From assembly GCF_017656155.1 (NCBI RefSeq), contig NZ_JACDOH010000004.1:124001-188000 (forward strand): a DNA stretch of 64,000 nt, written 5' to 3'. Below, in pieces: positions 3,467 to 62,505 of this stretch. Source of the DNA: Thermosyntropha sp. (GTDB lineage Bacteria; Bacillota; Syntrophomonadia; Syntrophomonadales; Syntrophomonadaceae). The number at the start of each line of letters is the position of its first letter. Positions within the stretch are counted from its first letter, which is position 1. Under the pieces are notes generated by a model. That model saw nothing but the letters and a program-made list of their open reading frames with translations. It ran no database searches and was not told where the DNA came from. The translations under genes were made by a program, and so were the position numbers.

Positions 3467-3962
3467 GTTTCAATTCCTCATAGGTAGGCTAAAAACTAAT
3501 CCGTATGAAGGCGGTGTAAACGATACATTTGGGTTTCAATTCCTCATAGGTAGTCTAAAAACTTGCAGGCTCATTGAATCTTATTGCATATCCTTCCAGT
3601 TTCAATTCCTCATAGGTAGGCTAAAAACTTACCATTTTTTATCGCTAAAAAACACATTTTATCGGGTTTCAATTCCTCATAGGTAGGCTAAAAACGAGGC
3701 GAGGAAAAATCTAGTTTATATTCGCGAATGTTGTTTCAATTCCTCATAGGTAGGCTAAAAACATAAAATCATTTTAAATTAAATAAACAAACACCCATGT
3801 TTCAATTCCTCATAGGTAGGCTAAAAACTTTTATAAGTGGTTTAGAAGGAAGGATGGACGAACTTGTTTCAATTCCTCATAGGTAGGCTAAAAACTCCAC
3901 TTTATTCCCCCTGAATCCAAGTCCCAGGGCTGGTTTCAATTCCTCATAGGTAGGCTAAAAAC
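3467..3962 (-). CRISPR. CRISPR array, 8 repeats and 7 spacers
   Basis: Eight 30-bp repeats start at 3467, 3533, 3599, 3666, 3733, 3799, 3866 and 3933, separated by unique spacers of 36-37 bp. On the + strand the repeat begins GTTTCAATTCC and ends GGCTAAAAAC. On the minus strand it ends in ATTGAAAC, the usual 8-nt 5' tag of Cas6-processed crRNAs, and a promoter lies at the high-coordinate side, so transcription is on the minus strand. Repeat 2 (3533-3562) has one substitution (TAGTCT for TAGGCT); the other seven are identical. The array sits immediately downstream of the type III operon. No adaptation genes or Cas6 are in the window. Confidence 0.97.
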
Positions 3963-4037
3963 CCGTTGAAATACCCATAAAAAAAATAAAACTTTATTTC
4001 GCTAAAATATTTAATTTAAATTTCATTTCTGTTCCTC

Positions 4038-8168: not shown

Positions 8169-10367
8169 CTATTTATCCCCCTGTTTTTTGAATAACCTCA
8201 GACAACGCAGGAAAGAAATCCAATAAGTTTTAGAAATCTCCCATTTAAAATCATGATCATTTTCTATGTCCCAACTAAGCAATTCTAATATTTTGAAAAA
8301 CTTTTGGAAATCTGCTTGGTTTTTAATTTCATCATAAATATTCAATTCACATAATTCATCCCACAACTTTACGCTATCGAGGACATCTCCTGCATTTTTC
8401 CCTTCCAGCTGCTCTATCCTCTTTCTGGCGTCTTCTAAGATTTCAGCCTCTAATAGCATACCTTCTAATCTGCCCAGCAAATGATTAGAAATCTGCCAGT
8501 ATCTTTTATTTTCTTCCGCTTTTTTTAAACCTTTATACTTTACAAATGCTAATATATCTGTTTTTACTATATATTCCAAAACAGGAGACACTTTACTTCC
8601 TGCCACAGTTTCTTCTATCCCAATAGAATTCCTATCTTCATTCGCTTCTCTTTCAGCATATCTTTCTTCCAAAGTTTCATATATTCTTATCTGCCCGAAT
8701 CCTGCTTCGGTTTTTTCTCCCAAGCCGTAAATCTGAAGTTCTTTAATCTTTTCCTTTATGTTTTCATAATCAGTCTCATCAAATATTAACCTCACTTCAA
8801 AACTTGATCCTGGTGCATATGCTGTATCTGCGGGAGACTTCATAGCCCATACCCCAACAAAATTTTCAACAGGTTGAATTTTGGCACATTGATTAATTAC
8901 CTCTACTTCGCCGCCTAAAAATTCTTCCAAGTATTTTTGAAAAATTTCCTCTGAAACTTCAGGATAGCCCTGGTCGTTATATAAAATGATAGGAGATAAA
9001 GCATGAATTATAAATTCATCATCCATATCAGCAGCAGCCGTTTCTTTTATTTCCCCCCAGGTAAATTTAATCAAACCATATTGAGCTGTTTTAGACCTGC
9101 CGATAAAAGCAGTAAAAGAATCAAATAATTTTTTAATTTCCTTTAAATATTCTTCATCTCCCAATATTTCACCAATAAATTCTTCATCCGCATTTACAGC
9201 TTCATAGTAAAAAATACCGCCATCTATACTGCTTCCTCTTTTTCTATCTCTCGTATTGTGAAAATAAAAGGTGGTTTCAGGCTCGTAAAAATATATATTT
9301 TCCCCTTTCATGCAGCAAAAGGCAGCAACCGGCTTAGTCTTTTTCTCTTCTCTTTCCATTTTAAAAACATTATAAAAATTCCTGTTATCTTCTCCCTTTT
9401 CTTTTTGCAGACATAAAGGAGCAGGATAATAAACTTCTCCCTCTTTGGCAGGATAGGCAGGTTTTATTAACAGTCCTCTGTTTAAAAAAAATTCCCAAAA
9501 CCACTTATCAAGATGGGCAGTTTCCTTATTCAGTCCCATAATATTGATAAATTTATGAGCCAGCAGTCCCCTTACTACATTCCCTGGAATATGCTTTTCC
9601 GTATAAACACTGTTTTGTTCTCCCACCTGTTTTGCTATTAAAATAGGAGAAATTACTTTAATATGATATTGTAAACTTTTCACACAACCTTTACCGCTTA
9701 ATTCCAGCTGTTTTGTTCTGAACTCTTCTCTTCTTTCCTGTTCGTCTTTGTTCGTTAAAATACGTAATGCTTCTTCAATTCCTAATCCTTCAAAACTACA
9801 ACTTATTTCCCCATATCCCCTATTTCTAGCAGTACCTATCCTTTTCAAATTTAAAGCCGCTAAATAAAGCAAAGCTTTCTCACGATCAGATAAAGGTTTG
9901 GTTTCATATATTTCGCCTTTAAAATTTAATTCAGGTTTTAAAACTCTTAAAGTCCTCAAACTGCTTTCTTTAGCAATACCTTTATCTAAATCTATGGCTG
10001 TTTGCTGCCTTATGGTTGTAAAAAATGAAGATATTTTCTGATAGGTTAAAAAGTTTCTGTATTTACTATCTTGCTTCAATTCTTTTATATCTTTTTTTAT
10101 CTCTTCATAATCTTCTATAACTAAATTGGCTATGCTGATCTTTCCTTCACCTAATCCTTTACTGCCAAAAAGGCTATCGACTATCTCTGCAGCAATCCCT
10201 AACATTTCGCAAACTTCCAAGGTGCTTTCTTTTAAAGCCCCTTTAATGCGGCGGGAAGGTATATAAGGTATGCCCAATTCATCTAAAACTACATCACTGT
10301 CAATCATACCTGCACCTTCTCCAGAGCCTATTAAAGTATAAGAAAGGGTTTGCAAACTTATATGCAT
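8169..10367 (-). CDS. Type III-D Cas7-Cas5-Cas11-like fusion (Csx10-related)
   Basis: The 732-residue protein has three parts. Residues 1-200 are a Cas7-like RAMP with GSGEGAGMIDSDVV (candidate slicer Asp23), PYIPSRRIKGAL and the glycine loop RIGTARNRGYGEI (176-188). Residues 230-565 resemble Csx10/Cas5, with HIPGNVVRGLLAHKF, GRSKTAQYGLIKF (423-435) and YGLGEKTEAGFGQI. Residues 600-732 are predicted helical and fit a fused small subunit (Cas11), which otherwise has no separate gene in the operon. This is the domain order of the III-Dv fusion. Its start overlaps the end of cas10 by 10 bases. The Cas11 assignment is by position and helicity only. Confidence 0.8.
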   Translation of the reverse strand: MHISLQTLSYTLIGSGEGAGMIDSDVVLDELGIPYIPSRRIKGALKESTLEVCEMLGIAAEIVDSLFGSKGLGEGKISIANLVIEDYEEIKKDIKELKQDSKYRNFLTYQKISSFFTTIRQQTAIDLDKGIAKESSLRTLRVLKPELNFKGEIYETKPLSDREKALLYLAALNLKRIGTARNRGYGEISCSFEGLGIEEALRILTNKDEQERREEFRTKQLELSGKGCVKSLQYHIKVISPILIAKQVGEQNSVYTEKHIPGNVVRGLLAHKFINIMGLNKETAHLDKWFWEFFLNRGLLIKPAYPAKEGEVYYPAPLCLQKEKGEDNRNFYNVFKMEREEKKTKPVAAFCCMKGENIYFYEPETTFYFHNTRDRKRGSSIDGGIFYYEAVNADEEFIGEILGDEEYLKEIKKLFDSFTAFIGRSKTAQYGLIKFTWGEIKETAAADMDDEFIIHALSPIILYNDQGYPEVSEEIFQKYLEEFLGGEVEVINQCAKIQPVENFVGVWAMKSPADTAYAPGSSFEVRLIFDETDYENIKEKIKELQIYGLGEKTEAGFGQIRIYETLEERYAEREANEDRNSIGIEETVAGSKVSPVLEYIVKTDILAFVKYKGLKKAEENKRYWQISNHLLGRLEGMLLEAEILEDARKRIEQLEGKNAGDVLDSVKLWDELCELNIYDEIKNQADFQKFFKILELLSWDIENDHDFKWEISKTYWISFLRCLRLFKKQGDK

Positions 10368-29237: not shown

Positions 29238-30227
29238 TTAAAACTTCTTTGCCTTTAATCTATTCATTAAGTTGACAAAAAGTGAACACTCCCGGTAATC
29301 CAAAAAATTTACCTTATCCCCTTCTTCCTTCATCCCTAACCAGATAATAAATTCATGCCCTAGAGGGCTGAAAAAAACTAAAACCGGCATAAAAAATTGC
29401 CATTTTGCAGCTAAAAAAGAGAAGCTCAAAAGAAGCAAACTAAAAACCAAAAGTCTTTTTGACGACTTTTTGCACCTTTCTTGAGGGCTATCAACAGTAG
29501 TTATTTCTCCATATCCCAAAACTGCCAAGACCGGCAAAATCTGATAATCTAAACTTCTTGCAAAATCCCCGGCATATCCGGGCAAAAGCGGCCACCAGTC
29601 AGGCATAAGGGAAACCCAGGAAAACTGATTATATCCTGTGCTCATCAGGACCATAAGAGGCAAAGGCCAAAACTTCTGAAGATTAAACCCTTCCCTTAAA
29701 ATTCCTTCCTTATTTACTTTTACCGAAACAGGTCCAAAAGCTCCATTAAAATAGATAAGCATACTCTCTACCAGATGCAAAACGGCCACCAAGGCCATAA
29801 GATGAGGAATATTTATGTCCGGATAGCCGGTTATAAGGCTTATCAAAGCTACTGCTCCTCCAGCATAAGCAAAACACAAATAACGTGGATTTATAAGCAT
29901 CAAAATAACTGCAGCTATCCAAAGCTGAACTATACCTATGGAAGCCAGGTCGATTCCAATAATTATAAGTAAAAAGCTACCCGCTATCCCTCCTAAAAAA
30001 CCACAAAAAGCGGACATTATCCCCTTTAAAATTGGGGACGGTTCTCGAATTAAAAAAATTAACCTGGAAGAAAAACCGCTTTCATCTGTTTTTTCAGAAG
30101 TCAGACGGAAATACTGCCAGATTATAAGAATCAGCAAAAGAATATATATGATAAGAAAAAGGGGCGAGGTAAACAAATTTTTGACTACCTGCCCCAACAA
30201 ATACCATAAACTAATAAATGCGCTCAA
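29238..30227 (-). CDS. Polytopic membrane protein beside Ctp protease
   Basis: The predicted protein has about eight hydrophobic segments and a cytoplasmic C-terminus. Its position beside a Ctp protease recalls the MinJ-like topology proteins of Firmicutes, but no PDZ domain follows the membrane part. The start is uncertain: the TTG at 30227 is chosen because GGAGG lies 8 bases upstream, and this removes an overlap with the ctp gene. Residues IREPSPI are encoded by a REP-like repeat inside the reading frame (30031-30062). Function is unassigned. Confidence 0.65.
   Translation of the reverse strand: MSAFISLWYLLGQVVKNLFTSPLFLIIYILLLILIIWQYFRLTSEKTDESGFSSRLIFLIREPSPILKGIMSAFCGFLGGIAGSFLLIIIGIDLASIGIVQLWIAAVILMLINPRYLCFAYAGGAVALISLITGYPDINIPHLMALVAVLHLVESMLIYFNGAFGPVSVKVNKEGILREGFNLQKFWPLPLMVLMSTGYNQFSWVSLMPDWWPLLPGYAGDFARSLDYQILPVLAVLGYGEITTVDSPQERCKKSSKRLLVFSLLLLSFSFLAAKWQFFMPVLVFFSPLGHEFIIWLGMKEEGDKVNFLDYRECSLFVNLMNRLKAKKF
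30031..30062 (-). repeat. REP-like repeat copy inside a coding sequence
   Basis: GGGGACGGTTCTCGAATTAA on the + strand is the conserved block of the intergenic repeat family, here within the membrane protein gene. It is read in frame as LIREPSPI without a stop. Confidence 0.75.
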
Positions 30228-30247
30228 ACAGATGACCTCCGCACATA

Positions 30248-31399
30248 TCAAAATATTTGCTTTTTAATAACCTCTACAGCCTTTTCCATCTGCAAATCCC
30301 TGTTCATGTCCTCCCCGTTTTTCACCTCATAATCGGGATGTATTCCTATTTCATTAATATCTGTTCCATCAGGGGTAAAATACTTCTGAGTCGTAAGCTT
30401 TAATGCTCCACCATCTCTCAAAGGATAAACCGTTTGCACCAAACCTTTGCCAAAAGTAGTAGTGCCTACAAGCAAAGCCCGGTTATTATCCTTTAAAGCC
30501 CCTGCCAAAATCTCTGCTGCACTAGCACTATCCTGGTTTATAAGGACTACCACAGGGACATCTACATTGCCTCCGGAAGATTCATATATTTCCTCATTTC
30601 CCTTGCCATCGGAAACGCTAACTATTTCCTTTCCTTTGTCTAAAAACAGACTGGCAATCGAAAGGGCTGCGTTAAAATCCCCGCCTCCATTATAGCGCAG
30701 ATCTAAAATAAGCCCTTTAATTTTCCTTTCCCGCAAAAGTTCATCTAAAGCATCAGCCATCTCTTCGGCTGAATGGGAATGAAATTGCTTTAAAGATATA
30801 TATCCTATCTTAGAAACTTCATCTATAACTTCATATTCTACCGAAGGAACATTTATGATCTCACGGATAATCTTAAACTCATATTCCTTACCTTCTGATT
30901 CCCGGAAAACCGTAAGCAAAAGCTGGGTTCCCGGATCACCGCGCATAAGGCTTACCACTTCATCCTGGGTCATATTCTGCACGCTTTCTCCATTTATCTT
31001 AAGAATAATATCCCCGTTTTTTACCCCCTTACGGTAAGCGGGCGTACCTTTAATTGGAGATATGATTTTAAATTTCCCTCTACTTTCTTCTAAAACATAA
31101 ACCCCTATACCGCCGAATTTTGCCTCCAACCTTATTCTAAGCTCTTCCCAGGTAGCTTTATCCAGATATTTGGAATATGGATCATGCAGGCTGTCGACAA
31201 TACCGGCTGTTGCACCTACAATCATTTGTTCTGTATCCGGCTCATATAACCCTTGAGTTTTTACAAGACTTACAACACTCAGCAAAGTTGCCAGATGATT
31301 CGCATTAGTAGCAAAAATCCAGATAAGGCTGGCCAGAGTCAAAAAACCTATAAGAGCAAAAAAAACAACAATCCCTTTCAAAAACCTGTTTTCTCTCAA
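30248..31399 (-). CDS. C-terminal processing peptidase (S41)
   Basis: The 383-residue protein has an N-terminal membrane anchor (FLKGIVVFFALIGFLTLASL), a PDZ domain (about 95-170, FKIISPIKGTPAYRKGVKNG) and the S41 catalytic core. The catalytic Ser is in NQDSASAAEILAGAL and the Lys in TTFGKGLVQTVYPL. Ctp proteases cut C-termini of exported proteins; CtpB in Bacillus acts in sporulation signalling. It sits downstream of the M23 hydrolase and FtsEX genes, suggesting a role at the envelope, but the substrate is not shown. Confidence 0.93.
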   Translation of the reverse strand: MRENRFLKGIVVFFALIGFLTLASLIWIFATNANHLATLLSVVSLVKTQGLYEPDTEQMIVGATAGIVDSLHDPYSKYLDKATWEELRIRLEAKFGGIGVYVLEESRGKFKIISPIKGTPAYRKGVKNGDIILKINGESVQNMTQDEVVSLMRGDPGTQLLLTVFRESEGKEYEFKIIREIINVPSVEYEVIDEVSKIGYISLKQFHSHSAEEMADALDELLRERKIKGLILDLRYNGGGDFNAALSIASLFLDKGKEIVSVSDGKGNEEIYESSGGNVDVPVVVLINQDSASAAEILAGALKDNNRALLVGTTTFGKGLVQTVYPLRDGGALKLTTQKYFTPDGTDINEIGIHPDYEVKNGEDMNRDLQMEKAVEVIKKQIF

Positions 31400-31477: not shown

Positions 31478-31652
31478 AACCAAGGGGATGATTTCTTCCG
31501 GTTCCAATAATAAACCAGAAAAACCATCCCCACAATTATTTCGAACCCAAAATACTTTTAAACTTCGGGACGGTTCTGAATTTAAAAACTGTTTCGATTC
31601 GAAATTGTTTTAAAATCGAGAACCGTCCCTAAATTAAAAGGTATTTCGAAGC
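31478..31652. repeat. REP-like repeat pair, inverted
   Basis: GGGACGGTTCT (31567-31577) and AGAACCGTCCC (31619-31629) face each other across 41 bases that include the TTTCGATTCGAAA palindrome; another TTTCGAAGCGAAA follows. The flanking 31480-31530 has worn copies (GGGGATG...CATCCCC). It lies between the M23 gene end and the ctp start. Confidence 0.75.
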
Positions 31653-31658
31653 GAAATG

Positions 31659-45597: not shown

Positions 45598-45698
45598 TTT
45601 ACTTCGGGACGGTTCCGAAATCAAAAACCATTTCGAATCGAAACAGTTTTTAATTTGGGGACGGTTCTCGATTTTAAAAGAATTTCGTTTCGAACTAA
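45598..45698. repeat. REP-like repeat, two copies in tandem
   Basis: GGGACGGTTCC (45606-45616) and GGGGACGGTTCT (45657-45668) stand 52 bases apart in the same orientation, each followed by a TTTCGA(A/T)TCGAAA-like palindrome. A worn partial block (GGGACGGGTTTAAAG) lies near 45869. They occupy much of the 430-base divergent gap between flaG and the transporter. Confidence 0.8.
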
Positions 45699-45800
45699 TT
45701 TGTTTAAGAAAATCTGTCTCAGAATAAAATACAAAATTTATTTCAAAAAACCTTAAATGATTATCTCTCAACTGTTCGTTAAAAAAATAACATTTTTTTG

Positions 45801-46937: not shown

Positions 46938-47007
46938 AAGTTGAAATAGTTTTAAATTTCGGAACCGTCCCCAATTTAAAATCTATTTCGATTCGAAGTT
47001 TTTTAGG
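46938..47007. repeat. REP-like repeat copy
   Basis: GGAACCGTCCCC (46961-46972) followed by AATTTAAAATCTATTTCGATTCGAAG is a single copy in the orientation opposite to the 45598 pair. The remainder of 46878-47105 shows no gene. Confidence 0.75.
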
Positions 47008-51649: not shown

Positions 51650-51727
51650 AAAATTATTTCGAATGGAAATACTTTTAAAAATGAGAACCGTCCCCAAATT
51701 AAAATCTATTTCGATCCGAAATTTCTA
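51650..51727. repeat. REP-like repeat copy
   Basis: AGAACCGTCCCC (51684-51695) is followed by AAATTAAAATCTATTTCGATCCGAAA; a TTTCGAATGGAAA lies on the other side. It occupies the gap between flgL and the DUF6470 gene. Confidence 0.78.
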
Positions 51728-52683: not shown

Positions 52684-54594
52684 CTATCTTCCAACAATGC
52701 CAATGCGATTGACAATGACTTCCAATGATTCATCCATAACAGTAATATAGCGGGCAGCTGCATTGTAGGCGTGTTGGAATTTTATTATATTCGCCATCTC
52801 TTCATCCAAAGAAACTCCGGAGACCGACTGCCTTTTGCTTTCTAACTGGTTTAAAAGGATTTCCTGGCTGTCCACCATGCGTTTGGCTTCTGATGCCTGC
52901 ACCCCTTTGTTGGCAGTAATAGCCCGCCAGTAATCATCACATGTAACATAATTTATTACTCCGCTGTAAGATTTGTCTGCCACAAGGCTTGCTGTCATAA
53001 GCGGGGTTGAAATCGGCGGATTCCCCTTTAAAAGATTGAGACCTGTCGCATCAATTTCCTTAAACCTCTCTCCCCCGACAAATATCAGCTTATCTCCACT
53101 CAATCTGACTTCTATCAAAACATCATTAGCCTTCAAATCCGCATCTTCCTGCAGATATTTCTGCAGGGCGTAGGCTAATTCAGCTAAATCCCGGTAATTG
53201 GCAGGAGGGGTTAAAGCGCTGATATTTATGGTCTTAGTAACCGTAGTCCCTGCTGCCGGATCATCAACATAAGTAATCACTATGTCACCTGATATATTAT
53301 CATACGGGAAAGAAAGACTCCCCAACGAAGGGCTTTCAGCCCATACATACCTGTCATTCAAACTGTGCTTGAGCTGGGCAATCTTTAGAGCATTAGCCCC
53401 ATCCCCGAAATTATATTTTTGCAAAACGCCGGTGCTGTCATCCCATGTGCGGTAAGCAGCTGCTGCAATATTTTTGGGATCAACTGCAATATTCTGAGCG
53501 ACCTTTATATATTCTGCCCAGTCTTCAATGGCATTTATATCTGCTAGCGTATCAGGCTGATCAAAAAAGTTGATGCCATCTGGAAAAGTAGTCTGGTTAT
53601 TGAGGCTGAAACCTCCTCTATGCAGTTCATTGGTCCTGAGCACAATAGTTTTAGCCAAGGTATTGAGCTGCTCCATCATTTCCGGAACAATCTCCTTATA
53701 AGGCGAAGGGGAAGGTTCTTCTGCTCTTTCTGTCTTGCCGCGGACATCTAAAAGGCCTCTAAGCTCTCCTCCTTCGACATTAGCTCTTACCCCGGTGTCT
53801 TTCCAGATTACCATATGCATACCCTGAGTATCCTGCACCGTCCCCAGCTCATAATACTCTACTCCCTGCACCAGGGTGCGTCCGCCCATCTGCACTGCCA
53901 CCATGCCGTTTTGTTCCTGGACTATCTTAACCGATGTTAAATGGCTTAACTGATCCAACAAATAATCTCTTTTATCTAAAAGGTCATTGGGCTGTTTGCC
54001 GGCAATATTTATGGCTAAAATCTGCTGGTTTAAATCAGCTACCTGCTGAATAATCGAGTTGATTTCCACCACCTTTATAGCAACGGAGGCATTTACATCT
54101 TCCCGCAGCTCCTTAAGCTGTTTGTAAGTATGGTTAAAGGTGTCTGCCATAGCCATAGCCCGCTGAACCACGGTTGCTCTTACCGCTTCACTTTCCGGAT
54201 TGGCAACTAAATCCTGCCACGACTTCCAGTAAAGATCCATAACCGAACGCAACCCATCCTCAGAAGGCTCATTAAGAATGACTTCTATCTTGGATAAAGC
54301 ATCCTGCAGTGCATTCCAATAACCTGCTGTTTTATTTTCATTTCTTATCTGTTCATCAATAAAAGCATCCCTTATCCGCTGAATATCCTTAACCGTAACC
54401 CCGGTTCCCATCTGCCCTGCCTTGCCACTGTTCACCATAACAGGGGTATGATAAGGCCTCGTTGTCTGCAGATTTGCCACCTGCCTGGTATATCCCGGCG
54501 TATTGGTATTGGAAATATTATGGCCGGCAACCTCTAGAGCCGTCTGATGACTCATAATCGATCTTTTGCCTATTTCTATTCCAAAAAAAGACAT
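52684..54594 (-). CDS. flgK: Flagellar hook-associated protein FlgK
   Basis: The 636-residue protein has the start FGIEIGKRSIMSHQTALEVAGHNISNTNTPGYTRQ, the conserved DLNQQI region and the C-terminus VSLDEEMANIIKFQHAYNAAARYITVMDESLEVIVNRIG. It is the first junction protein (HAP1). It is preceded by flgN, probably its chaperone, by 23 bases. Confidence 0.96.
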   Translation of the reverse strand: MSFFGIEIGKRSIMSHQTALEVAGHNISNTNTPGYTRQVANLQTTRPYHTPVMVNSGKAGQMGTGVTVKDIQRIRDAFIDEQIRNENKTAGYWNALQDALSKIEVILNEPSEDGLRSVMDLYWKSWQDLVANPESEAVRATVVQRAMAMADTFNHTYKQLKELREDVNASVAIKVVEINSIIQQVADLNQQILAINIAGKQPNDLLDKRDYLLDQLSHLTSVKIVQEQNGMVAVQMGGRTLVQGVEYYELGTVQDTQGMHMVIWKDTGVRANVEGGELRGLLDVRGKTERAEEPSPSPYKEIVPEMMEQLNTLAKTIVLRTNELHRGGFSLNNQTTFPDGINFFDQPDTLADINAIEDWAEYIKVAQNIAVDPKNIAAAAYRTWDDSTGVLQKYNFGDGANALKIAQLKHSLNDRYVWAESPSLGSLSFPYDNISGDIVITYVDDPAAGTTVTKTINISALTPPANYRDLAELAYALQKYLQEDADLKANDVLIEVRLSGDKLIFVGGERFKEIDATGLNLLKGNPPISTPLMTASLVADKSYSGVINYVTCDDYWRAITANKGVQASEAKRMVDSQEILLNQLESKRQSVSGVSLDEEMANIIKFQHAYNAAARYITVMDESLEVIVNRIGIVGR

Positions 54595-56938: not shown

Positions 56939-57045
56939 TTAAATTGGGGACGGTTCTGAAATTAAAAACTATTTCACTTTCGAAATACTTTTTAACTTGG
57001 GGACGGTTCTCGATTTTAAATCTTTTTCGATTCGAAATAATTCCG
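56939..57045. repeat. REP-like repeat, two copies in tandem
   Basis: GGGGACGGTTCT occurs at 56946-56957 and 56999-57010, 53 bases apart in one orientation. They are followed by TTTCACTTTCGAAA and TTTCGATTCGAAA. Apart from these, 56804-57108 holds no gene. Confidence 0.82.
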
Positions 57046-59542: not shown

Positions 59543-60676
59543 TCAACTGGCCCCTATCCTTACATACAAAAATTCTCTAACAATCTTAACAATTCGCTTT
59601 GAAGCTCTTCCGTCCCCATAAGGATTTATAGCCTTTGCCATCCTATCATATTCCATCTTATCAGTAAGCAAAAGTTTAGCTTCCCGATAAATATTATCCC
59701 GAACTGTTCCCACCAGTTTAACCGTCCCTGCCTTTACTGCTTCCGGTCTTTCCGTAGTATCCCTCAGAACCAGAACCGGTTTGCCGAGAGAAGGTGCTTC
59801 CTCCTGCAATCCTCCCGAATCAGTCAAGACCATATAACAAACATTCATAAGATTGGCAAAAGGTTCATAATCAAGTGGTTCTAAAAGATGTATCCTCTTC
59901 TTATTGCCCAGCATATCCATGGCTAAGTTCCGCACTATCGGATTCATATGCACCGGAAAAACTACTTCTACATCTGGGAATTCTTCTACCAAGTCAATTA
60001 AAGCCTGATAAATCCCGCGCATCTTATCTCCCCAGTTTTCCCGGCGGTGGGTAGTCACCAGAAGCAGACGGTTATTAAAATTAATATCCTTAAATTCAGA
60101 GCCAAACTTATAATCCGGTTTTACCGTTGCTAAAAGGGCGTCAATAACAGTATTTCCCGTTACCCAAATTTTAAAAGAAGCCGTAGATTCAGATAAAAGA
60201 TTCTCTCGCGCCGTATCGGTAGGAGCAAAATGAAGTTCAGCCAAACGACCTGTTAAAGTGCGATTCATCTCTTCCGGAAAAGGGGAATACTTATTGCGGG
60301 TTCTAAGCCCTGCTTCTACATGCCCCACTGGAATCTTAGCATAAAAAGCTGCTAAAGCAGCCGCAAAAGTAGTAGTAGTATCACCATGTACCAAAACCAG
60401 GTCTGGCTTTTCCTTCTCCAAAATATCCTTAATTCCGTTTAATACCCCGCTGGTTATGCTGTAAAGATCCTGTTTTTCCCTCATAAGATCAAGGTCGTAG
60501 TCTGGCCTAATCCCAAAAAGATTAAGCACCTGGTCCAGCATCTCCCGATGCTGAGCCGTAACTACCACAACCGTATCCAAATCCTCTGACGACTTAAGTT
60601 CCTTAACAACCGGAGCCATCTTAATAGCCTCTGGCCTGGTACCAAACACTACCATAACCTTGCCTAAATGAATCAA
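59543..60676 (-). CDS. wecB: UDP-N-acetylglucosamine 2-epimerase
   Basis: The 377-residue protein has VVFGTRPEAIKMAPVVKEL, TAQHREMLDQVL, LVHGDTTTTFAAALAAFY, HVEAGLRT and DSGGLQEEAPSLGKPVLVLRDTTERPEA. It makes UDP-ManNAc for teichoic-acid or surface-glycan linkage units. The TTG start is preceded by AGGAGGAAGG. It follows the REP-flanked RAYT region on the same strand. Confidence 0.96.
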   Translation of the reverse strand: MIHLGKVMVVFGTRPEAIKMAPVVKELKSSEDLDTVVVVTAQHREMLDQVLNLFGIRPDYDLDLMREKQDLYSITSGVLNGIKDILEKEKPDLVLVHGDTTTTFAAALAAFYAKIPVGHVEAGLRTRNKYSPFPEEMNRTLTGRLAELHFAPTDTARENLLSESTASFKIWVTGNTVIDALLATVKPDYKFGSEFKDINFNNRLLLVTTHRRENWGDKMRGIYQALIDLVEEFPDVEVVFPVHMNPIVRNLAMDMLGNKKRIHLLEPLDYEPFANLMNVCYMVLTDSGGLQEEAPSLGKPVLVLRDTTERPEAVKAGTVKLVGTVRDNIYREAKLLLTDKMEYDRMAKAINPYGDGRASKRIVKIVREFLYVRIGAS

Positions 60677-60714: not shown

Positions 60715-60813
60715 ATTAAAAAACTACTTCGAATCGAAACACTTTTTAATTTGTAATTTGTGTAATTTGGGGACGGTTCTAAAGTTTAAAACTATTTCAG
60801 TATCGAAATAATT
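60715..60813. repeat. REP-like repeat, copy downstream of the RAYT
   Basis: TTCGAATCGAAACACTTTTT (60728-60747) is followed by a shared 34-bp end (60747-60780) that finishes in GGGGACGGTTCT, then TTTCAGTATCGAAA. The 34-bp stretch occurs identically at 62387-62420. The rest of 60677-60941 shows no gene. Confidence 0.85.
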
Positions 60814-60941
60814 TTCTAACCCTTACCTACTTAACATTGACAAAGTTTAAAATTCAACACCGCCGCCACCCATCAGCCGGCAGCATATAATCCCCACAAA
60901 ACATATATACTTCAATATTCTTAAAACCATAACAACCATAA

Positions 60942-61358
60942 TTAAATATTCGGCTTTTTCAACATTGATACCGGTAGTATGTTGGTAATTTTAAAAACCA
61001 GACAGTTTTTAAGGGGAAAATTAGCATACTTAGTTCGCAAAAGCCGCGCTTTAATACGCTCATAATATTCCCCTTCCGTATAATCGCCAACCAATTCAAC
61101 ATAAACCCTTATCCCATCTTTGCTTTTTTCTCCATCAGTTAATAATACCATAAAAACCCCTTTGCCGGTTTCCTTAAGATTAGCATATGTTTTATCTGCT
61201 CCAAAGCGTGCACATATAATAGTCTCATCATCTATCATTTCTAGAACTGAAATCACCGCAATATTAACATTATAATCCCTGTCAACCGTGCTCAAAGTAG
61301 TAGAAATATAATTGGCATTAATAAGCTCTCTTGCTTTTTCTATTAACCCCCTGTCCAT
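60942..61358 (-). CDS. Pyridoxamine 5'-phosphate oxidase-like FMN protein
   Basis: This 138-residue split-barrel flavoprotein (MDRGLIEKARELINANYISTTLSTVDRDYNVNIAVISVLEM; TYANLKETGKGVFMVL) resembles the PNPOx-like FMN-binding family, redox enzymes of unknown substrate. ATG at 61358 is chosen because AGGAGG lies 8 bases upstream; the open frame goes 12 codons further back. It lies downstream of the RAYT gene inside the segment bracketed by 34-bp direct repeats. Confidence 0.82.
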   Translation of the reverse strand: MDRGLIEKARELINANYISTTLSTVDRDYNVNIAVISVLEMIDDETIICARFGADKTYANLKETGKGVFMVLLTDGEKSKDGIRVYVELVGDYTEGEYYERIKARLLRTKYANFPLKNCLVFKITNILPVSMLKKPNI

Positions 61359-61428
61359 CACACATTCCTCCTTTTTTTTACAGAACGGTTTCAAGATTTA
61401 AAAATTTTAACTCAAATCCCGTCCAAAA

Positions 61429-62208
61429 TCAAAACTTCTGTGCTTTCTTCAATATATAACGGCTAACGCCGGTAATTTCCATGATAACCTTGTCGGGAAG
61501 CTTCGTTTTCTCCTTAAATTCCTTCAATGCTAAAAGCTTTTGCTCGTAAAGAAAAATATCGCCATTATCAACCAAGCCCTTTTCATTTATCAACTGCTCC
61601 CATAAAAGAACCGCCTCTTCCCTGTTCATCGGCTCATTTATATCGAAAAAATCCCCTTCGACCGACTGATTCATAAACCTAATATATTCTTCCCTAGCCT
61701 CTTCTTTTCCTGCCCCCAGTAAGCTTAAAAGCATATCGGTATCAACCAAGGAGAAAAAAGGATGCTTTTCGTCAAGATAACAGCCGTAGCTGCTCCACAT
61801 GTAGTCAGCAGGTCGTTGGACTAATCCTGCTTTTACCGGATTCTGATGAATATAGCGGGCTAAAGCTAAAAAATACCTGTCACTTTCCACATTTTCACTT
61901 TTAAATCTATCCTGAAAAAGATGTCCTATCCTTTCATGTTTATGGTTAAAATAAGATACATAACTTACTGCTATCCGCTTCATTACATCTGATAAATCTC
62001 TTCCGTTTTCGCCTATCATCATATGTATGTGATTGCTCATCAAACAAAATGCATAAAGATAAAATCCGGTCGCTTTCTTCTTAGCCTGCAGGGTTGAAAT
62101 AAAGCGCAGTCTATCCTCATCATCGTAAAAAATCGGCTTCTTCTCATTACCGCGCAAAATAACATGATAACAACCACTTCGACTCTTAACCCTTCTGCTC
62201 CTGGGCAC
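61429..62208 (-). CDS. REP-associated tyrosine transposase (RAYT)
   Basis: This Y1_Tnp-type HUH transposase has SRSGCYHVILRGNEKKPIFYDDEDR near the start, the HUH pair in MSNHIHMMIGE and the catalytic-Tyr region ALARYIHQNPVKAGLV followed by MWSSYGCYL. The C-terminal region (KTKLPDKVIMEITGVSRYILKKA) is helix-turn-helix-like. This is the layout of RAYTs, which nick and move REP sequences as single strands. The GTG start (62208) gives the usual MPRSRR start and has GGGAGGGG before it. REP-like copies lie on both sides. Confidence 0.93.
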   Translation of the reverse strand: MPRSRRVKSRSGCYHVILRGNEKKPIFYDDEDRLRFISTLQAKKKATGFYLYAFCLMSNHIHMMIGENGRDLSDVMKRIAVSYVSYFNHKHERIGHLFQDRFKSENVESDRYFLALARYIHQNPVKAGLVQRPADYMWSSYGCYLDEKHPFFSLVDTDMLLSLLGAGKEEAREEYIRFMNQSVEGDFFDINEPMNREEAVLLWEQLINEKGLVDNGDIFLYEQKLLALKEFKEKTKLPDKVIMEITGVSRYILKKAQKF

Positions 62209-62383
62209 CTCATCCCCTCCCAAATGCAACAGCCTAAACCCCTCTACCGCATGCTGCATCTCATCTGCATTTAAAAACCAATACTCTTAAAAGCTTAAAC
62301 TCCCCAGCTTTTGTGTATATTTTTCTATACGAAGGAAATATTGTCAAGAATTATGTTTATATCTCCTTGCTTTTCCAATTCTC

Positions 62384-62500
62384 CTGTAATTTGTAATTTG
62401 TGTAATTTGGGGACGGTTCTCGATTTTAAATCTGTTTCGATCCGAAATACTTTTAAATTTTAGAACCGTCCCCAAATTGAAAACTGTTTCGATTCGAAAG
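62384..62500. repeat. REP-like repeat, inverted pair upstream of the RAYT
   Basis: The 34-bp shared end (62387-62420) finishes in GGGGACGGTTCT. It is followed by TTTCGATCCGAAA and, inverted, AGAACCGTCCCC (62462-62473) with TTTCGATTCGAAA. GGGGACGGTTCT and its complement face each other over 41 bases, the same layout as at 31567-31629. The rest of 62209-62505 shows no gene. Confidence 0.85.
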
Positions 62501-62505
62501 AAGTT

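What the first reader, a model, noticed from the sequence alone, without database searches (positions are those of the whole stretch)
60747..62420. 34-bp direct repeats bracketing a RAYT gene and a flavoprotein gene
Seen: an identical 34-bp stretch ending GGGGACGGTTCT stands at 60747-60780 and 62387-62420 in the same orientation, one on each side of a RAYT with HIHMM and YIHQNP motifs. Other REP-like copies in the window lack the TAATTTGTGTAATTT part. Inference: these are the native substrates of the RAYT, and the 1.6-kb segment may be a mobile or recently duplicated unit carrying a passenger flavoprotein gene.
Basis: partly seen in the sequence, partly recalled or inferred. Interest (0 to 1): 0.6.

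Follow-up and report, generated by a model that had tools for sequence, protein, structure and literature searches.

The report
Transposase locus seeded with hairpin repeats
The two identical 34-base repeats are real, but they are ordinary members of a scattered hairpin-repeat family that crowds around its own single-strand-cutting transposase gene, and they do not mark the ends of a jumping unit carrying a flavoprotein gene.

Summary
Confirmed: identical 34-bp direct repeats at 60747-60780 and 62387-62420, the only two such copies in the 2.11-Mb genome. They flank an intact HUH-Y1 transposase (RAYT) and an FMN-binding-protein gene.

Each repeat is a local variant of a dispersed element: a 12-nt tip, GGGGACGGTTCT, between inverted AT-rich arms (36 exact tips in the genome; reversed control 1). 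Twelve of 36 elements lie within 32 kb of the only RAYT gene (1.1 expected).

The composite-unit reading fails. The FMN gene sits next to wecB in relatives without RAYT. The RAYT keeps its chromosomal place in the sister species. The 1.6-kb unit has no second copy.

Comparative data identify the system as TIRYT / RAYT subclass 2.1. In related Bacillota such genes are flanked by inverted GGGGACGGTTCT tips held in hairpin loops whose arms vary but stay complementary. Some copies are 860-900-bp units 98.7-100% identical at different sites. Tip number tracks RAYT presence across 151 genomes.

Most likely the RAYT acts on these hairpins as single strands and copies them, often nearby. The shared 16-bp extension probably arose by local copying or conversion between two neighbouring elements. 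That is inference; no activity was shown.

The parts
60721..60818 (+). Element 1: palindromic arm - 34-bp variant tip - palindromic arm, between the FMN gene and wecB
   Evidence: arm TTTCGAATCGAAA-like at 60727-60739; intergenic
60747..60780 (+). First 34-bp repeat; the general 12-nt tip GGGGACGGTTCT is 60769-60780
60942..61358 (-). FMN-binding split-barrel protein gene (138 aa; likely start ATG at 61358, not TTG at 61394)
   Evidence: PDB 3in6 'FMN-binding protein' E=4.8e-68; start from conservation in 29 genomes; ancestral neighbour of wecB
61429..62208 (-). RAYT / REP-associated tyrosine transposase (HUH + Y1, C-terminal helical extension); ORF open to 62259, likely GTG start at 62208
   Evidence: NF047646 87.1 bits over cut-off 80; Pfam Y1_Tnp; A1/A2 invariants H77, H79, Y136, N140, P141; AlphaFold2 pLDDT 86.9, best PDB match 4er8
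62387..62505 (+). Element 2: 34-bp variant tip, palindromic arm, inverted second tip (62462-62473, - strand), palindromic arm; folds as one long hairpin (REPIN-like)
   Evidence: fold -30.1 kcal/mol, z=-8.1, 0 of 200 shuffles
62387..62420 (+). Second 34-bp repeat; tip 62409-62420
56941..57044 (+). Two tips in direct orientation 53 bp apart (56946, 56999) with a shared palindromic arm
51652..51722 (-). Single-tip element (tip 51684-51695)
45600..45705 (+). Two tips in direct orientation, 45605 (2 mismatches) and 45657
46943..47004 (-). Single-tip element (tip 46961-46972, one mismatch)
31520..31657 (+). Element with inverted tips 31566+ / 31619- and a decayed third tip
30029..30045 (+). Lone tip without recognisable arms
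59543..60676 (-). wecB (UDP-GlcNAc 2-epimerase), synteny anchor
   Evidence: TIGR00236 E=4e-158

Best explanation
The locus is a single-copy, vertically kept RAYT gene of the TIRYT type (RAYT subclass 2.1) together with its dispersed non-autonomous repeats. The repeat unit is a hairpin or inverted-arm element whose conserved part is the 12-nt tip GGGGACGGTTCT. Shown by sequence: the tip family, its abundance and clustering near RAYT, its conserved inverted placement around RAYT genes in relatives, compensating hairpin arms, and near-identical RAYT units at different sites in relatives. Inferred: the RAYT binds the folded tip as single-stranded DNA, nicks it with Y136 and moves or copies tip elements, preferentially nearby. 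Inferred: the 34-bp identity comes from recent local copying or conversion between two neighbouring elements; the 16-bp extension GTAATTTGTGTAATTT looks like slippage of the TAATTTG arm and arose after the split from the sister species. The FMN gene is a bystander.
For: 36 exact tips against 1 reversed control. 12 of 36 elements within 32 kb of RAYT, 1.1 expected, p=4e-10; G004 30 of 59 within 135 kb, 6.7 expected; G082 all 7 within 8 kb. Tip count against RAYT presence: Fisher p=4e-12 overall, p=3e-5 outside the family. 38 of 56 RAYT ORFs flanked by inverted [N]GGGACGG within 200 bp; inverted words of 10 nt or more in 99 of 126 loci against 39 direct; exact GGGACGGTTCT beside 64 of 99 RAYT loci. 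Arms around the tip vary but pair: mean stem score 5.75 against 3.27 shuffled, 0 of 200. RAYT units 860 bp 100% identical (G042), 862 bp 98.7% (G021) with unlike flanks and ends at the tip hairpins. Sister-species synteny. Y1/HUH fold like 4er8, a RAYT bound to a REP hairpin. No other 34-bp copy in the genome.
Against: Several genomes have many tips and no recognisable RAYT (G006 66, G029 49, G056 32), so tips can outlive or come without it. Own-genome single tips fold weakly, and within this genome arm pairing shows no covariation because the arms are conserved. In this genus the nearest tips do not bracket the RAYT as tight terminal inverted repeats. No complete empty site (both flanks) was found for the mobile copies. 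No biochemistry.
Confidence: 0.75

Rival explanations
1. The 1.64-kb stretch between the 34-bp repeats is a mobile or recently duplicated unit whose ends are the repeats and whose cargo is the FMN gene.
For: Exact repeats at both ends, found nowhere else in the genome.
Against: One copy only. FMN gene adjoins wecB in RAYT-less relatives. Sister species holds RAYT and FMN in the same order but separated by two genes. Elsewhere in the family the mobile unit is about 860-930 bp with inverted, not direct, ends.
Confidence: 0.04
2. The 34-bp identity is the footprint of homologous gene conversion or replication slippage between two neighbouring repeats, with no transposase involved.
For: Identity stops abruptly at both ends; the extension is a slipped TAATTTG series; the elements lie 1.6 kb apart.
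Against: Identity ends exactly at the tip's 3' end, which would also suit a transposase strand exchange; tips cluster near RAYT genes in several genomes.
Confidence: 0.4
3. The tips are kept as transcription terminators or RNA stability hairpins, and RAYT association is historical.
For: 7 of 8 window elements are intergenic; element 2 forms a very stable hairpin; tips persist in RAYT-less genomes.
Against: Conservation is of the loop tip rather than stem stability, single elements fold weakly, and tip number tracks RAYT presence.
Confidence: 0.12
4. The RAYT itself recently transposed to this site with its terminal repeats.
For: Relatives carry such units as multicopy elements; the RAYT block is inserted between S8 peptidase and FMN compared with other genera.
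Against: Orthologue at the same place in the sister species at 69% identity; no tight inverted tips around the window RAYT; the RAYT clade is shared with other families, so entry predates the genus split.
Confidence: 0.05

Closest known systems
TIRYT / TIRtron (Di Nocera et al. 2013, PMC3733652)
   Same: RAYT-like Y1 gene; flanking inverted repeats, many with GGGGWSAS; some repeats self-complementary; moderately abundant dispersed copies in dimers and clusters
   Different: Tip here is GGGGACGGTTCT (GGGGACGG departs from GGGGWSAS at position 7) and is shared across many Bacillota genera; in this genus the RAYT is not tightly bracketed by the repeats
RAYT subclass 2.1 / group 1 (PMC6006769, BMC Genomics 2018)
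   Same: Y---NP motif, C-terminal HTH-like extension, long protein; HTH_23/HTH_28 hits in relatives
   Different: That paper found no REP-like structures near subclass 2.1 genes and low identity between copies in a genome; here hairpin tips flank most genes, and some genomes hold 98.7-100% identical units
REP/REPIN systems with GTAG tips (E. coli TnpA-REP, Pseudomonas)
   Same: One single-copy RAYT, dispersed inverted-tip pairs, repeats at the RAYT locus
   Different: No GTAG foot; the conserved motif sits in the hairpin loop rather than at its foot
IS200/IS605 (IS608, ISDra2)
   Same: HUH-Y1 nuclease fold
   Different: No tnpB neighbour; single copy here; inverted terminal tips in the relatives

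Membership tests
RAYT (REP-associated tyrosine transposase) | HUH motif and Y---NP catalytic tyrosine motif | tested here: met
   H77-I-H79, Y136-IHQNP, invariant in 26 aligned proteins; NF047646 over cut-off
RAYT (REP-associated tyrosine transposase) | Y1/HUH fold like E. coli TnpA-REP | tested here: met
   AlphaFold2 model; best match 4er8 E=3e-7, TM 0.72 by target length
RAYT (REP-associated tyrosine transposase) | Associated with a dispersed repeat family in the same genome | tested here: met
Canonical GTAG REP | GT[AG]G at the foot of the hairpin | tested here: not met
   The conserved motif in about 30 listed elements is GGGGACGGTTCT; no conserved GTAG beside the palindromes
TIRYT / subclass 2.1 | Terminal inverted repeats with GGGGWSAS close to the gene | tested here: inconclusive
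   Met in relatives with GGGGACGG; in the window the tips lie 200 bp upstream and 650 bp downstream
TIRYT / subclass 2.1 | C-terminal helix-turn-helix extension | tested here: inconclusive
   Helices 237-275 predicted; Pfam HTH_23 in 4 and HTH_28 in 2 of 26 proteins, none in the window protein itself
REPIN | Two inverted tips forming one hairpin | tested here: met
   62387-62505 folds at -30.1 kcal/mol, z -8.1
Autonomous IS (IS200/IS605-like) | Several near-identical copies in the genome | tested here: not met
   One RAYT in the window's genome; met in G042, G021, G034
Composite transposon with passenger gene | Cargo absent at the empty site | tested here: not met
   FMN gene present beside wecB in RAYT-less relatives
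RAYT (REP-associated tyrosine transposase) | Cleavage and rejoining of single-stranded repeat DNA | not testable with these tools
   needs biochemistry

The most novel reading that the evidence does not exclude
GGGGACGGTTCT displayed in a hairpin loop is a shared recognition site of Bacillota subclass-2.1 RAYTs: one motif conserved across diverged RAYTs and many families while the stems drift. It serves both autonomous 0.9-kb units that still transpose and miniature elements that spread mainly around a domesticated, single-copy RAYT.
Probability: 0.5. Interest if true: 0.6.

Novelty: new variant of a known kind. Interest (0 to 1): 0.42.

Why it matters
Subclass 2.1 is one of the largest RAYT groups and was reported to lack recognisable REP-like partners. 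A tip that is constant across genera, held in a loop with drifting stems, gives a concrete substrate to test. Genomes with multicopy near-identical units beside genomes with one fixed copy allow a direct comparison of mobile and domesticated states of the same enzyme group. The original claim of a 1.6-kb mobile unit with cargo would not matter, because it is not supported.

Tried and rejected
Clean empty sites for the multicopy RAYT units: flanks of seven units searched in 15 congeners; left flanks end exactly at the element in several, but right flanks are not syntenic, so no two-sided empty site. Replication-strand bias: in complete genome G021 tip strand differs by replichore (2+/15- against 8+/3-, p=0.003), but flanking genes have the same bias, so lagging-strand targeting cannot be separated from gene orientation. 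Within-genome covariation of arms: uninformative, arms too conserved. CGTC-REP membership: the tip's reverse complement contains CGTC, but the architecture (tag at hairpin foot) differs. One-mismatch tip at 53708 and two-mismatch tip at 53834 lack arms and were taken as chance. Exact motif in the literature: no bacterial paper on repeats in the held library prints it; figures and supplements are not searchable. Bertels 2017 (PMC5581495) is not held.

Full report
OBSERVATION. The 34-bp sequence is identical at 60747-60780 and 62387-62420 in the same orientation. It is the only exact repeat of 34 bp or more in the window; ten first-order shuffles gave longest repeats of 15-19 bp. Allowing three mismatches, the genome (2.11 Mb, 15 contigs) holds only these two. 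The last 12 bases, GGGGACGGTTCT, are different in kind: 36 exact copies genome-wide against 1 for the reversed pattern, and 12 within one mismatch in the window against 0.17 expected.

WHAT THE REPEATS ARE. Listing the elements shows a modular design: the tip is flanked by AT-rich palindromes around TTTCGANTCGAAA, and tips occur singly or in twos 51-55 bp apart, in inverted or direct orientation, with one palindrome between them. Every near-match of the palindrome in the window lies beside a tip. Element 2 (62387-62505) is an inverted pair that folds at -30.1 kcal/mol (z -8.1). In element 1 the usual arm ...CACTTTTTAATTT is followed by 16 extra bases before the tip. The 34-bp repeat is therefore a normal tip plus an arm extension private to this pair. 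The identity stops at the 3' end of the tip; beyond it the two elements carry different members of the arm family.

THE GENES. The RAYT (61429-62208, minus) passes the NCBI cut-off for REP-associated tyrosine transposase, keeps HIH and YIHQNP, and its AlphaFold2 model (pLDDT 86.9) best matches 4er8, a RAYT bound to a REP hairpin. The neighbour (60942-61358) is an FMN-binding protein (PDB 3in6, E 5e-68).

IS IT A MOBILE UNIT? The RAYT is single-copy. In the sister species (G001) the RAYT orthologue (69%) has the same surroundings (S8/SLH protease, ParA, RAYT, FMN, wecB, phosphoglucomutase), but two other genes lie between RAYT and FMN. There, repeats of the same family flank the RAYT and also sit between FMN and wecB, the position of the window's first repeat. 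In about 15 other family genomes the FMN gene adjoins wecB, directly after an S8 peptidase or a TetR gene where that could be read, including RAYT-less ones; the G010 junction is clean. So the RAYT block is the later insertion and FMN-wecB the ancestral pair. The family is that of Syntrophomonas: G034 contig 5 has the same length and RAYT position as a contig of S. wolfei subsp. methylbutyratica.

LINK BETWEEN TIP AND RAYT. Over 151 genomes, those with a RAYT hit have a median of 16 tips and those without 0 (Mann-Whitney p=1e-14; Fisher for 5 or more tips p=4e-12; outside the family p=3e-5). Tips crowd around RAYT genes: 12 of 36 elements within 32 kb here (1.1 expected), 30 of 59 within 135 kb of one RAYT in complete genome G004, all 7 within 8 kb in G082. 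Genomes were not corrected for phylogeny, and several have tips with no RAYT found.

WHAT THE RELATIVES SHOW. In 38 of 56 loci the RAYT ORF is flanked within 200 bp by inverted [N]GGGACGG. A motif-free test finds inverted shared words of 10 nt or more in 99 of 126 loci, against 39 for direct words, and 63 contain GGGGAC or its complement. The exact GGGACGGTTCT lies beside 64 of 99 loci. The tip sits in the loop of a hairpin whose stems differ between genomes but remain complementary (mean stem score 5.75 against 3.27 for shuffled partners, 0 of 200 shuffles, 81 loci). Some genomes carry near-identical units ending in these hairpins: 860 bp 100% identical twice in G042, 862 bp 98.7% twice in G021, 902 bp 99.8% in tandem in G034. 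With unlike flanks in G042 and G021 this is good evidence of unit mobility, though no two-sided empty site was found.

MECHANISM. Shown: architecture, abundance, clustering, association, compensating stems. Inferred from the Y1/HUH family: recognition of the folded tip as single-stranded DNA, nicking by Y136, strand transfer. The 34-bp identity is best read as recent local copying or conversion between two neighbouring elements; which of the two cannot be told.

RELATION TO THE KNOWN. This fits TIRYT/TIRtron (PMC3733652; inverted repeats with GGGGWSAS) and RAYT subclass 2.1 (PMC6006769). The tree places the window RAYT with Thermoanaerobacter, Geosporobacter and Peptococcaceae proteins rather than the sampled Syntrophomonas-family copies (98/97 support). 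What departs from those papers is the loop-displayed tip conserved across genera, the strong clustering, and near-identical multicopy units (the 2018 paper reports low identity between class 2 copies and no REP-like structures for 2.1).

Noticed in passing
window 3467-3974: CRISPR-like array: 8 repeats of 30 bp (GTTTCAATTCCTCATAGGTAGGCTAAAAAC) at 66-67 bp spacing.
   Followed up: no
L294 / G004:C1:1796242-2047167: Complete genome G004 has regular inverted tip pairs (32 pairs, mostly 33-40 bp between tip starts) whose density peaks at its RAYT at 1.913 Mb, a textbook REPIN-like population.
   Followed up: partly
G021:C1: Strand of single tips differs between the two replichores (2+/15- against 8+/3-), but gene orientation is confounded with it.
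   Followed up: partly
L113:8843-9157 and 9996-10221: In the sister species a larger related element (tips 169-266 bp apart, shared interior) flanks the RAYT on both sides as a direct repeat, an independent parallel to the window's arrangement.
   Followed up: partly
G006, G029, G056: Genomes with 32-66 tips but no RAYT detected even with the NF047646 profile: loss of the transposase, assembly gaps, or mobilisation by another enzyme.
   Followed up: partly
G004, G021, G034, G035, G043 near the FMN-wecB locus: RAYT genes lie within about 5-75 kb of the FMN-wecB locus in several family genomes, hinting at a recurrent RAYT-rich region.
   Followed up: no
window 30034-30045: Exact tip inside the 5' part of a minus-strand ORF (29238-30251), without arms; the ORF's true start may lie downstream.
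   Followed up: no
L114:246-1199, L115:1644-2553, L121: Several RAYT units are preceded by a short orphan copy of their own left end, as if new units insert beside existing ends.
   Followed up: partly
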